Below, piece after piece: positions 21,149 to 24,583 of a DNA stretch of 32,675 nt. Where the stretch lies: positions 1-32,675 of the forward strand of contig JAERRW010000049.1 in the NCBI GenBank assembly GCA_016735235.1, given 5' to 3'. Position 1 is the first letter of the stretch. Each line of letters begins with the position of its first letter. The position numbers and the translations under genes were made by a program. The notes under the pieces were generated by a model that was given only the letters and a program-made list of their open reading frames with translations, was not told the DNA's origin and did no database searches. Origin of the DNA: Sulfurospirillum sp. Lineage in GTDB: Bacteria; Campylobacterota; Campylobacteria; Campylobacterales; Sulfurospirillaceae.

Positions 21149-21205
21149 TGAATGTTATTCGTAACTTATTAGTTTAATATTTAACTTCATCGTTTATTAG
21201 AAAAA

Positions 21206-21293
21206 TGGAGGTTGAGAGGGGATTCGAACCCCTGGTAGAATTAACTACATAACCTTTCCAAGGTTACACCATCGACCACTCGGACACTCAACC
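21206..21293 (-). tRNA. tRNA-Ser(GGA)
   Basis: The minus strand folds as a class II tRNA: 7-bp acceptor GGTTGAG/CTCAACC, D arm with TCCGAG, anticodon loop TTGGAAA (anticodon GGA, 21257-21259), a long variable arm with a GTAG/CTAC stem, and TTCGAAT in the T loop. CCA is encoded at 21206-21208. The discriminator base reads T rather than the usual G of tRNA-Ser. A run of T residues follows the 3' end. Confidence 0.95.
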
Positions 21294-21312
21294 ATGTTTA
21301 AAAGAAAAAATA

Positions 21313-21318
21313 AGTATA
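21313..21318 (-). promoter_or_regulatory. Likely -10 of tRNA-Ser(GGA)
   Basis: TATACT on the minus strand (context TTGTATACTTATT) ends 19 bases before the mature 5' end of the tRNA. No strong -35 is seen. Confidence 0.5.
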
Positions 21319-21497
21319 CAAAAAATAAACTGTATCTTTATTAAAATAAAACAATCTATGACCAACATGTGGCAACACTAAAAATATATATTTTTGTTTA
21401 AAAGTAGATGAAAAATATTGATTTTTAAAAACATACAACTACATGTTTCTCGGTATCCCCTTGTTGGCTAATTCAACATTTGTTAATTAGAACTTTG

Positions 21498-21503
21498 TAT
21501 AAT
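21498..21503 (+). promoter_or_regulatory. Likely -10 of the fic gene
   Basis: TATAAT (context CTTTGTATAATTT) lies 67 bases before the preferred fic start. The rest of the gap from 21294 to 21537 has no gene; it holds three ACATGT hexamers (21365, 21441, 21511) and a 6-bp inverted repeat CTAATT...AATTAG. Confidence 0.55.
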
Positions 21504-21564
21504 TTCCTTTACATGTTAGTTTGTGCTGGAGATCTTAATGCAACACAAAAATAGGAGAGATTCT

Positions 21565-22311
21565 ATGCAAATAGATAGTGAAAAAATTAATAATATCAAA
21601 ATAGATAAATTGAGTATATTTATACCAAATAAAAAATTTTTTGTAGCGATGGCAAAGAAAGATAGGGTTGATTTTATATATAATACTTCTGCACTAGAGG
21701 GTAATATTATGACTTATCCAGATGTTGCTACGCTTTTAGATGGTGTAACGGTTGGAGGTCATAAGCTTAGTGATGAACAACAGATACTCAATCAAAATAG
21801 AAGTTTAAATCTTCTTTTTAGTATGATAGAAAATAAGAGTTTTGAACTAAACAAAAAGAGACTTTTGAAACTCCATAAAAAAGTGGGATTTGAAGAGGCA
21901 TTGAGTTGGGGAGAGTTTAGAAGTGGTGGTGTGCATATAGGTGGTACAGAGTTTTTGCCACCAAAAGCAGATCACTTAGATAGCCATTTCAATAATGGAA
22001 TAAATGAGATAAAGAAAATTTCAAATCCTATTGTACAGGCTATCACATATTTTTTATTTGGTGCAAAGTCTAAGTTTTTTTATGATGGAAACAAGAGAGT
22101 ATCAAGACTTATGATGAATGGTATTTTACTTCTCTATGGTTATCCTATTTTAAATATCAAAGTCAAAGACAAACTAGAGTTAAATAAAATGATGATTGAC
22201 TTTTACGATAATGATAATATTCAAAAAAGTATAAAATATTTGTGTGATTACTATCTGAAACAAAACAGAGTTTTTAAAGTAAAAGGTATTAAGATTAATG
22301 AAAAAAAATGA
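21565..22311 (+). CDS. Fic-family protein with an atypical active site
   Basis: Fic enzymes transfer AMP or another phosphate-containing group to proteins. From the ATG at 21565 (AGGAGA six bases upstream) the protein has 248 residues; ATG 21538, with GGAG upstream, and GTG 21523 are alternatives. Residues 41-46, TSALEG, match the N-terminal inhibitory motif [ST]xxxE[GN] of class II Fic proteins, and 121-133 form the target-docking flap (GGVHIGGTEFLPP). The Fic loop, HxFxDGNGRxxR in active members, reads KFFYDGNKRVSR (170-181): Lys replaces the catalytic His and the GNGR Gly is Lys, as in Doc (NKR). AMP transfer should therefore be impaired or use different chemistry. Single gene between two tRNA loci; no antitoxin gene adjoins. 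Confidence 0.85.
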   Translation: MQIDSEKINNIKIDKLSIFIPNKKFFVAMAKKDRVDFIYNTSALEGNIMTYPDVATLLDGVTVGGHKLSDEQQILNQNRSLNLLFSMIENKSFELNKKRLLKLHKKVGFEEALSWGEFRSGGVHIGGTEFLPPKADHLDSHFNNGINEIKKISNPIVQAITYFLFGAKSKFFYDGNKRVSRLMMNGILLLYGYPILNIKVKDKLELNKMMIDFYDNDNIQKSIKYLCDYYLKQNRVFKVKGIKINEKK

Positions 22312-22405
22312 AAATGTTTTGATAAATTTGTTTTAATGAAACCGTCAGTTAGTTTTATGATGACTTTATTAGCATTTGTTTTATTTTAGTGTTTAAAAAA
22401 AGTAG

Positions 22406-22493
22406 TGGCCGGGAGAGGGAGATTCGAACTCCCGGAGGTATTACCCTCGCTGGTTTTCAAGACCAGTGCATTCAACCGCTCTGCCATCTCCCG
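22406..22493 (-). tRNA. tRNA-Ser(UGA)
   Basis: Class II fold on the minus strand: acceptor CGGGAGA/TCTCCCG, discriminator G, encoded CCA at 22406-22408, anticodon loop CTTGAAA (anticodon TGA), long variable arm, GTTCGAAT T loop. Last gene of the four-tRNA cluster; a run of seven T follows the 3' end on the minus strand. Confidence 0.96.
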
Positions 22494-22511
22494 ATTAAAT
22501 TGCAATATATA

Positions 22512-22585
22512 TGGAGGCGACACCCGGATTTGAACCGGGGATCAGAGCTTTGCAGGCTCCTGCCTTACCACTTGGCCATGTCGCC
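22512..22585 (-). tRNA. tRNA-Cys(GCA)
   Basis: Acceptor GGCGACA/TGTCGCC, discriminator U as expected for Cys, encoded CCA at 22512-22514, anticodon loop CTGCAAA (GCA), T loop TTCAAAT. Third gene of the cluster. Confidence 0.96.
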
Positions 22586-22604
22586 AAAACAGTATTTATA
22601 GTAG

Positions 22605-22692
22605 TGGTGCCCGGGGCCGGACTTGAACCGGCACACTCAAAACGAGCGAGGGATTTTAAGTCCCTTGCGTCTACCAATTCCGCCACCCGGGC
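22605..22692 (-). tRNA. tRNA-Leu(UAA)
   Basis: Class II fold: acceptor GCCCGGG/CCCGGGC, discriminator A, encoded CCA at 22605-22607, anticodon loop CTTAAAA (TAA), D loop GGCGGAATTGGTAGACG typical of tRNA-Leu, T loop TTCAAGT. Second gene of the cluster. Confidence 0.96.
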
Positions 22693-22724
22693 TTTAAATA
22701 AATACTATATCTGTTTTAATATTA

Positions 22725-22799
<75 letters not shown>

Positions 22800-22903: not shown

Positions 22904-24583
22904 ATGCGTAGCGACCAAGTAAAAAAGGGATACAATAGAGCCCCTCACAGAAGTCTATTTAGAGCAACAGGCATAAAAAATGAAGATTTTGATAAACCGT
23001 TTATTGGTGTAGCAAATTCATATATAGATATTATACCCGGTCATTTTTTCTTGCAACAATATGGTGCAATTATTAAAGATGAGATAAAAAAAAGTGGTTG
23101 TGTACCATTTGAGTTTAATACTATTGGTGTTGATGATGGAATTGCTATGGGTCATGATGGTATGCTTTATTCTCTTCCTAGTCGTGAACTTATAGCAAAC
23201 TCTATAGAGACTGTTATGAATGCACATAAGCTTGATGCTATGATTTGTATGCCGAACTGCGACAAAATAGTTCCCGGTATGATTATGGGAGCATTACGCG
23301 TAAATGTCCCCACTGTTTTTGTTAGTGGTGGTCCTATGAAAAAAGGTTATACAAAAGATGGTGATCCAATAGATTTAGCAACAGCATTTGAAGCGGTGGG
23401 TAAATTTGAAAATGGAGACATAACTAAAGAGGAGCTTACTGATATAGAGTGCAATGCATGTCCGAGTGGTGGGAGTTGTTCGGGTATGTTTACTGCAAAT
23501 AGCATGAATACTCTTATGGAAGCTATGGGAATTGCACTCTCAGGTAATGGGACTATTTTAGCCTTAACTTTAGAGAGGGAAGTACTCATAAGAGATGCAG
23601 CAAGAAGAGTTTGCGAGATAGCACTTGATAAAAGATATAACTTTAAAAATATATTAAATGAGAAAGCAATTAGAAATGCATTTGCAATTGACATGGCAAT
23701 GGGCGGAAGCTCAAACACTGTTCTTCACATGTTGGCAATTTCTAAAGAGGCAGGAGTCAATTTTAACATAGCAGATATTAATGAAATAAGTAAAAAAGTA
23801 TCTCATATAGCAAAAATTTCTCCATCACTCTCAACAGTCCACATGGAAGATATAAATAGAGCTGGTGGAGTTAATGCAGTCATGAAAGAGATAGCAAAAT
23901 GCGATAATGATTCTATGTATCTTGACAATTTAACAGTTACAGGGCAAACAATAGGCGAGCGTATAGAACATTGTAAAATTAAAGATACAGACATAATTCA
24001 TACACTAGATAACTCTTACTCAAAAGTAGGAGGATTAGCAATACTTTTTGGCAATTTGGCAAAAGCTGGTTGTGTTATAAAAACCGCAGGCATTATTGGA
24101 GAAAGAAGTTTTACAGGCAAAGCAGTATGTTTTAATTCACAAGATGAGGCAATTTTAGGAATTACAAACAATAGAGTAAAAGCTGGCGATGTTGTAGTTA
24201 TTCGCTATGAAGGACCAAAGGGGGGTCCGGGAATGCAAGAGATGCTAGCCCCTACAAGTCTTATTATGGGAAAAGGTCTTGGTAAAAGTGTAGCTCTTAT
24301 TACAGATGGTAGATTTAGTGGAGCGACTCGTGGGCTTAGCATTGGTCATATAAGTCCAGAAGCAGCCGAAGGAGGCATGATAGGACTTCTTGAAGATGGC
24401 GATAAAATATCTATTGATGTTGATGCTTATACTATAAAAGTGGAACTTAGCGAAGATGAAATTAGTTTAAGAAGAGCTAATTTTAAACCAATTGTAAAAC
24501 ATGTTAGCGGAAGTTGGCTAAAACAGTATAGATTGCTTGTAACTAATGCAAGTAGCGGTGCGGTACTAAAGACGGAATTTTAA
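22904..24583 (+). CDS. ilvD: Dihydroxy-acid dehydratase
   Basis: It dehydrates 2,3-dihydroxy-isovalerate and the 3-methylvalerate analogue, the penultimate step of valine and isoleucine synthesis, using an Fe-S cluster. The 559-residue protein contains [13 protein letters not shown], the Fe-S Cys motif [11 protein letters not shown], a second Cys in [17 protein letters not shown], the [12 protein letters not shown] segment and [15 protein letters not shown] near the C-terminus, all typical of IlvD rather than phosphogluconate dehydratase. ATG at 22904 lies six bases after AAAGGA. recQ follows after 14 bases in the same direction. Confidence 0.96.

What the first reader, a model, noticed from the sequence alone, without database searches (positions are those of the whole stretch)
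21565..22311. Fic protein with the catalytic histidine replaced by lysine
The Fic loop is KFFYDGNKRVSR where active AMP transferases have HxFxDGNGRxxR, yet the inhibitory motif TSALEG, the docking flap GGVHIGGTEF and the rest of the loop are well kept. Conservation without the general base suggests altered chemistry, a binding-only role or regulation of another Fic. I recall related proteins with FFxDGNKR, so this may be a whole uncharacterised subfamily.
Basis: partly seen in the sequence, partly recalled or inferred. Interest (0 to 1): 0.55.

Follow-up and report, generated by a model that had tools for sequence, protein, structure and literature searches.

The report
Histidine-less Fic protein, lysine variant
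This bacterial gene makes an intact Fic-type protein that has lost the one residue such enzymes need to attach AMP to other proteins; it belongs to a widespread, still untested group in which that residue is normally glutamine, so it probably binds something rather than modifying it in the usual way.

Summary
In detail: window 21565-22308(+) encodes an intact 248-aa Fic protein with loop KFFYDGNKRVSR, so both the catalytic His (K170) and the second loop Gly (K177) are replaced. No conserved His elsewhere replaces it. Of 95 distinct relatives examined, 67 lack the His: 65 have Gln and 2 have Lys (the window and a Clostridium). All 67 have Lys in GNKR; 63 of the 65 that cover the column keep the inhibitory Glu. 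Selection is purifying. With the loop columns removed, the His-less set still splits from His-bearing Fics on one supported branch. The clade is already in print as "D2" (Khater & Mohanty 2015, Qx[FY]x[DE][GV]NKR), and one Gln member was reported non-toxic in E. coli (Vercammen 2013). The window is therefore a Lys variant nested in a known, biochemically uncharacterised clade. The predicted fold matches FICD (Z 26.2), with FICD's gatekeeper Glu kept. Relatives are patchy, often on plasmids or viral contigs, and in 5 of 67 loci sit inside type I restriction operons. Best guess: a binding module held in a state like FICD-H363A, which traps AMPylated target, rather than an AMPylator. This mechanism is inferred, not shown.

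The parts
21565..22311 (+). His-less Fic protein gene, 248 aa, single domain
   Evidence: model mean pLDDT 93.7
21553..21557 (+). AGGAG ribosome-binding-site-like motif, 7 nt before ATG 21565
   Evidence: sequence, (recognised by eye)
21685..21702 (+). class II inhibitory motif T41-S-A-L-E45-G46
   Evidence: Glu in 63 of 65 His-less relatives covering the column
21721..21762 (+). segment D53 to H66, aligned to the FICD dimer-relay residues Glu242 and Lys256
   Evidence: alignment; FICD residues from PMC6826200 passages
21925..21954 (+). flap region GGVHIGGTEF
22072..22074 (+). codon AAG = K170, the catalytic His position (Gln in 65 of 67 His-less relatives)
22072..22107 (+). Fic loop KFFYDGNKRVSR (K170-R181)
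22093..22095 (+). K177 of GNKR, Lys in 67 of 67 His-less relatives, Gly in 27 of 27 His-bearing ones

Best explanation
An intact, selected, FICD-like class II Fic protein, nested in the His-less clade that Khater & Mohanty called D2, in which the catalytic His is Gln (here Lys) and the loop reads GNKR. Shown: the sequence, its conservation, its place in the tree, the predicted fold. Inferred: it no longer AMPylates. The kept gatekeeper Glu, metal-site Asp, Asn, Arg and flap act as a binding site for a nucleotide or a modified protein target, held in a state like FICD-H363A, which binds AMPylated BiP tightly without turning it over. Carried on mobile DNA and sometimes inside restriction operons, it would work as a sensor or sequestering partner rather than as a classic Fic toxin.
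For: 95 distinct Fic relatives: 67 His-less (65 Q, 2 K); Lys of GNKR 67 of 67; gatekeeper Glu 63 of 65; loop Asp 62, Asn 65 and Arg 67 of 67. Tree without the loop columns, 90 of the 95 rows: His-less versus His split on one branch, SH-aLRT 98. dN/dS 0.055-0.203 in the 25 pairs printed of 31 with dS under 1.5; the Gln codon varies silently (13 CAA, 8 CAG of 22). Model pLDDT 93.7; FICD 4u04_B Z 26.2, rmsd 2.4 over 222 residues. FICD-H363A dimers bind BiP-AMP tightly with low off rates (PMC6826200 passages). [quoted passage not shown] A Gln member was not toxic in E. coli (PMC3948609 passages). Contexts: hsdR 6-7 nt downstream in 5 of 67 loci.
Against: No ligand or target is known. The Lys of GNKR may disturb AMP binding in the FICD orientation (inference from the Doc literature, recalled). 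22 of 67 members lack the last loop Arg, one has Gly for the metal-site Asp (L045), and the two zeta-fused members have Ala for the Glu, so no single nucleotide pocket is kept by all. Lack of toxicity is one 'data not shown' result on one Gln member. Most loci show no conserved partner gene.
Confidence: 0.45

Rival explanations
1. Altered transferase: the His-less loop still catalyses group transfer, with another residue or none as base and a different or inverted donor, as AvrB does with UDP-rhamnose or Doc with inverted ATP.
For: Loop Asp, Asn and Arg are kept in 62, 65 and 67 of 67 and GNKR Lys is invariant. AvrB, a Fido protein, is a rhamnosyltransferase (PMC10866546 abstract). HFFxDGNKR in the two viral-contig hits is carried by short Doc-type proteins, so the loop is Doc-like. 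Khater & Mohanty argue that D2 may not be dead.
Against: His is required in well-studied Fic enzymes. No new invariant acid or His specific to the clade was found near the loop; the clade-specific invariant Y (66 of 66) was not placed in the structure. Gln to Lys switches twice, unexpected for a tuned catalytic residue.
Confidence: 0.3
2. Antitoxin-like regulator of a canonical Fic through a Fic-Fic complex.
For: Fic1 neutralises Fic2 in Campylobacter fetus (PMC5651007 passages). L058 has a Gln-Fic followed about 22 nt later by the open frame of a canonical HPFIDGNGR Fic. All 12 carrier genomes searched had at least one other Fic place.
Against: 17 of the 20 other genomes in the same search also have Fic places, and most loci, the window included, have no Fic next door.
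Confidence: 0.12
3. One-way deAMPylase: Glu45 activates water and Lys170 protonates the leaving group.
For: In FICD, Glu234 aligns the water and His363 is the putative general acid (PMC8373988 passages); Lys could be an acid but hardly a base (inference).
Against: 65 of 67 relatives have Gln, which is no acid; deAMPylation needs the His in Fic-1.
Confidence: 0.06
4. Decaying enzyme; the Lys is random loss.
For: The window pair with L025 has the highest dN/dS of the 25 pairs printed, 0.203.
Against: Open frame, strong constraint, 67 relatives with the same loop design from several phyla, and a second independent Lys.
Confidence: 0.04

Closest known systems
Clade D2 of the Doc subfamily (Khater & Mohanty 2015, PMC4454073, section 6 read)
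   Same: Same loop except the first residue; single domain; bacterial; the tree places the window inside the Gln set
   Different: D2 consensus begins with Gln, the window has Lys; here the clade is shown to carry a class II inhibitory motif and an FICD-like body, which the section read does not mention
FICD/HYPE (human)
   Same: Fold over 222 residues, gatekeeper Glu, loop Asp, Asn and Arg, dimer-relay acid (D53 here, mostly Glu in the family, for Glu242)
   Different: No catalytic His, GNKR instead of GNGR, His66 in place of Lys256, no TPR domain
Doc (P1 type)
   Same: NKR loop
   Different: Doc keeps the His and takes its inhibitor from a partner (recalled); here the inhibitory motif is in cis and no antitoxin ORF is seen
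Vercammen ORF25 (PMC3948609, passages)
   Same: QFFFDGNKRTAR, non-toxic
   Different: Gln, not Lys; sequence not compared here
AvrB (PMC10866546, abstract)
   Same: Fido fold with unusual chemistry
   Different: Not compared by sequence here; plant-directed effector

Membership tests
Fic/Fido domain (PF02661) | Pfam profile match over the domain | tested here: met
   36.7 bits, cut-off 24, profile 2-93 of 93
Fic/Fido domain (PF02661) | Fic fold | tested here: met
   Model pLDDT 93.7; Z 26.2 to FICD 4u04_B
Fic AMP transferase | Catalytic His in HxFx[DE]GNGRxxR | tested here: not met
   K170; no conserved substitute His
Fic AMP transferase | Second Gly of GNGR | tested here: not met
   K177
Fic AMP transferase | AMP transfer activity | not testable with these tools
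   needs protein
Class II Fic | (S/T)xxxE(G/N) helix N-terminal to the Fic core | tested here: met
   T41xxxE45G46; helix 34-44 in the model
Clade D2 (Khater & Mohanty) | Gln at the His position | tested here: not met
   Lys
Clade D2 (Khater & Mohanty) | x[FY]x[DE][GV]NKR | tested here: met
   FFYDGNKR
Clade D2 (Khater & Mohanty) | Groups with Gln-bearing members in a tree | tested here: met
   Nested among Gln rows; 25-row set at SH-aLRT 95. Their own sequences were not in the tree
Doc toxin | His plus NKR | tested here: not met
   Lys for His
Doc toxin | Adjacent antitoxin gene | tested here: inconclusive
   ORFs of 60 aa or more listed: next to the Fic gene only one of 70 aa that runs through tRNA genes; smaller ORFs not excluded
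PADLOC SoFic / PDC-S04 | Profile match | tested here: inconclusive
   42.7 and 38 bits, weak, no cut-off given

The most novel reading that the evidence does not exclude
The His-less clade is a set of natural substrate traps: readers that recognise proteins modified by Fic enzymes or related transferases, or nucleotide-bound targets, through a gatekeeper-locked Fic pocket, and that mobile elements and restriction operons carry to sense or blunt such attacks. Lys versus Gln at position 170 tunes binding, not catalysis.
Probability: 0.12. Interest if true: 0.8.

Novelty: new variant of a known kind. Interest (0 to 1): 0.4.

Why it matters
A large, patchy, mobile group of Fic proteins has kept most of the active site but the catalytic His. 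Knowing what it does would show either a new chemistry of the Fido fold or a reader of protein nucleotidylation; the six listings read for this question named no such reader, in an open-access library only. The Lys variants give a simple test of whether position 170 is catalytic at all.

Tried and rejected
Shifted-loop His: rejected. Random decay: rejected. Regulation of another host Fic by co-occurrence: uninformative. More Lys variants: a DNA pattern for KFF, then F/Y or a codon like them, then DGNKR had 0 hits in viral contigs, the Gln pattern 19, the His pattern 2 short Doc-type proteins. A conserved partner gene: none general; the largest recurrent neighbour clusters were integrase-like (9 loci) and hsdR (5 loci) of 67. 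Insertion scar in the window: no flanking direct repeat beyond tRNA arms; G+C as in the surroundings; no terminator-like site, promoter-like sites below the shuffled mean. AvrB paper: a find for histidine or motif terms gave nothing; abstract and outline only. Coxiella CbFic2 passages did not settle the His question. A search for R-linked ORFs with Fic gave nothing on point; that C. jejuni restriction loci hold extra R-linked ORFs is recalled. Zeta-Fic fusions: paper search gave two papers, not opened, that by title are unrelated.

Full report
What is there. The gene at 21565-22311 (+) is intact, has a plausible ribosome-binding site, and encodes 248 aa with loop KFFYDGNKRVSR. It matches Pfam Fic (36.7 bits); a sequence search of solved structures gives FICD first (E 3e-12). 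The contig belongs to a 1.5 Mb draft genome with six Fic places. The gene lies between tRNA-Ser(GGA) at 21206-21293 and a four-tRNA array at 22406-22799.

Relatives. A scan of species genomes gave 23 loci; the full-length close ones have QFF[FYW][DE]GNKR (one has QLF), the Clostridium one has KFFYDGNKR. Adding plasmid, viral-contig and genome loci and keeping hits over 150 or more profile positions gave 122, of which 95 distinct. Of these, 67 lack the His (65 Gln, 2 Lys), 27 have it, and one canonical row (L002) has a gap in the column; L084 was counted as non-His through a one-column misalignment and is canonical. In the 67: Lys in GNKR 67, loop Arg 67, Asn 65, Asp 62, last Arg 45; inhibitory Glu in 63 of 65 that cover it, and 19 of those 63 keep the Glu without the last Arg that it usually pairs with (the pairing is recalled and is also described for Fic-1-AntF). 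In the 27 His-bearing Fics the loop has Gly, never Lys, at position 177. The set was collected with His-less seeds, so these are not frequencies among all Fics; Doc-type proteins do combine His with NKR.

Tree and selection. In a quick tree of 95 rows the His rows form one side of a branch (99), and Lys appears twice, on terminal branches next to Gln rows. One distant Gln row (L036, QPFVDGNKR) fell beside the His rows with weak support and on a long branch. With the loop columns removed and five rows dropped, one branch separates 65 His-less from 25 His rows (98). Both trees are quick searches and flag long branches; neither is rooted, so which state is ancestral is not shown. dN/dS is 0.055-0.203 in the 25 pairs printed of 31 with dS under 1.5 among 22 close relatives; the window pair is the highest.

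Distribution. In Campylobacterota 10 of 397 genomes match at 1e-40 and all ten carry Gln or Lys. In the phylum of the Clostridium carrier 38 of 398 match at 1e-25: at least 8 are His-less by loop, 22 of the 30 loci read are canonical, and 8 genomes were not read. In the phylum of the Chromatiales carrier 11 of 398 match, 9 of them Gln. The centres of the last two searches were chosen as carriers. Plasmids: 502 of 72,556 records match by tblastn; only eight plasmid or phage records were read for their loop, so not all of the 502 need be His-less.

Structure. The model of the window protein (32-row alignment) has mean pLDDT 93.7, pTM 0.90. FICD chains lead both comparisons: 4u04_B Z 26.2, rmsd 2.4, 222 residues. 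By the alignment, E45 matches FICD Glu234, D53 matches Glu242 and H66 matches Lys256 (FICD numbering assigned by me from the named residues). Glu242 and Lys256 form the relay from the dimer interface to Glu234 (PMC6826200, passages). The conserved block PEVQTLLxGxTVGGHKLSDE thus covers the relay. Whether the protein is a dimer was not tested.

Neighbourhood. In 5 of 67 loci (L007, L008, L009, L010, L041) the gene is followed by hsdR after 6-7 nt and has an AlbA_2 gene directly upstream; Pfam was run on the L008 hsdR and on the L041 and L007 upstream genes, the rest by similarity. Other single cases: AbiEii beside L019, TacA-like antitoxin and acetyltransferase after L015, IS200-like transposases beside L018 and L019, and GmrSD_N beside the second His-less Fic of the window's own genome. 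Most loci, the window among them, show no partner (whose output was cut in the middle, so part of the list was not seen). In five same-genus or same-family genomes fetched, the tRNA-Ser(UGA) end borders different genes (three) or a contig end (two), so the window's junction is a variable site.

Literature. Khater & Mohanty 2015 (section read) define D2, 45 sequences, Qx[FY]x[DE][GV]NKR, function unknown. Vercammen 2013 (passages) report that ORF25, QFFFDGNKRTAR, is not toxic in E. coli. No Lys variant and no function for the clade was seen in the listings, in an open-access library only; most of the papers listed were not opened.

Reading. The His is needed for AMPylation and, where tested, for deAMPylation, and FICD without it binds the AMPylated target tightly. 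A clade that drops the His, keeps the gatekeeper Glu and swaps Gln for Lys twice fits binding better than catalysis, but new chemistry is a serious rival, since the loop Asp, Asn and Arg are kept. Identity is firm (about 0.9); mechanism is open (0.45).

Noticed in passing
L051 3245-4744; L053 2425-3702: Acinetobacter plasmid proteins fuse an N-terminal zeta-toxin kinase domain to a C-terminal His-less Fic domain that has also lost the inhibitory Glu (AAVAGN) and reads NQFTFEGEKR; 96 Acinetobacter plasmid records match the query.
   Followed up: partly
L004 1309-2118 (G000 contig C48): The window's own genome has a second His-less Fic (QYFTDCNKR), 225 nt from a GmrSD_N restriction gene.
   Followed up: partly
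L058 3905-4618 and 4640-5401: Tandem genes: a Gln-Fic (QFFWDGNKR) followed about 22 nt later by a canonical Fic frame (HPFIDGNGR).
   Followed up: partly
L007, L008, L009, L010, L041: His-less Fic inside type I restriction operons, between an AlbA_2 gene and hsdR; L007 also holds an AbiJ_NTD4 protein matching PADLOC PDC-S32 (173 bits).
   Followed up: partly
L045 1456-2211: A His-less relative in which the metal-site Asp is Gly (QFFYGGNKR).
   Followed up: no
window 22904-24583; L020 2685-4544: ilvD lies downstream of the Fic gene both here (beyond the tRNA array, named by its likeness to L020's) and, 16 nt away, in a Chromatiales draft genome; may be coincidence.
   Followed up: no
L052 2956-3645: Campylobacter jejuni plasmid copy of a His-less Fic is interrupted by a stop and annotated as two genes.
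   Followed up: no
L009, L010: Contigs filed under Gracilibacteria and Desulfosporosinus carry near-copies of Campylobacterota genes; probably misbinned (inference).
   Followed up: no
window 21150-22420: The tRNA-Ser(UGA) end of the tRNA array borders different genes in related genomes, so the site is variable.
   Followed up: partly
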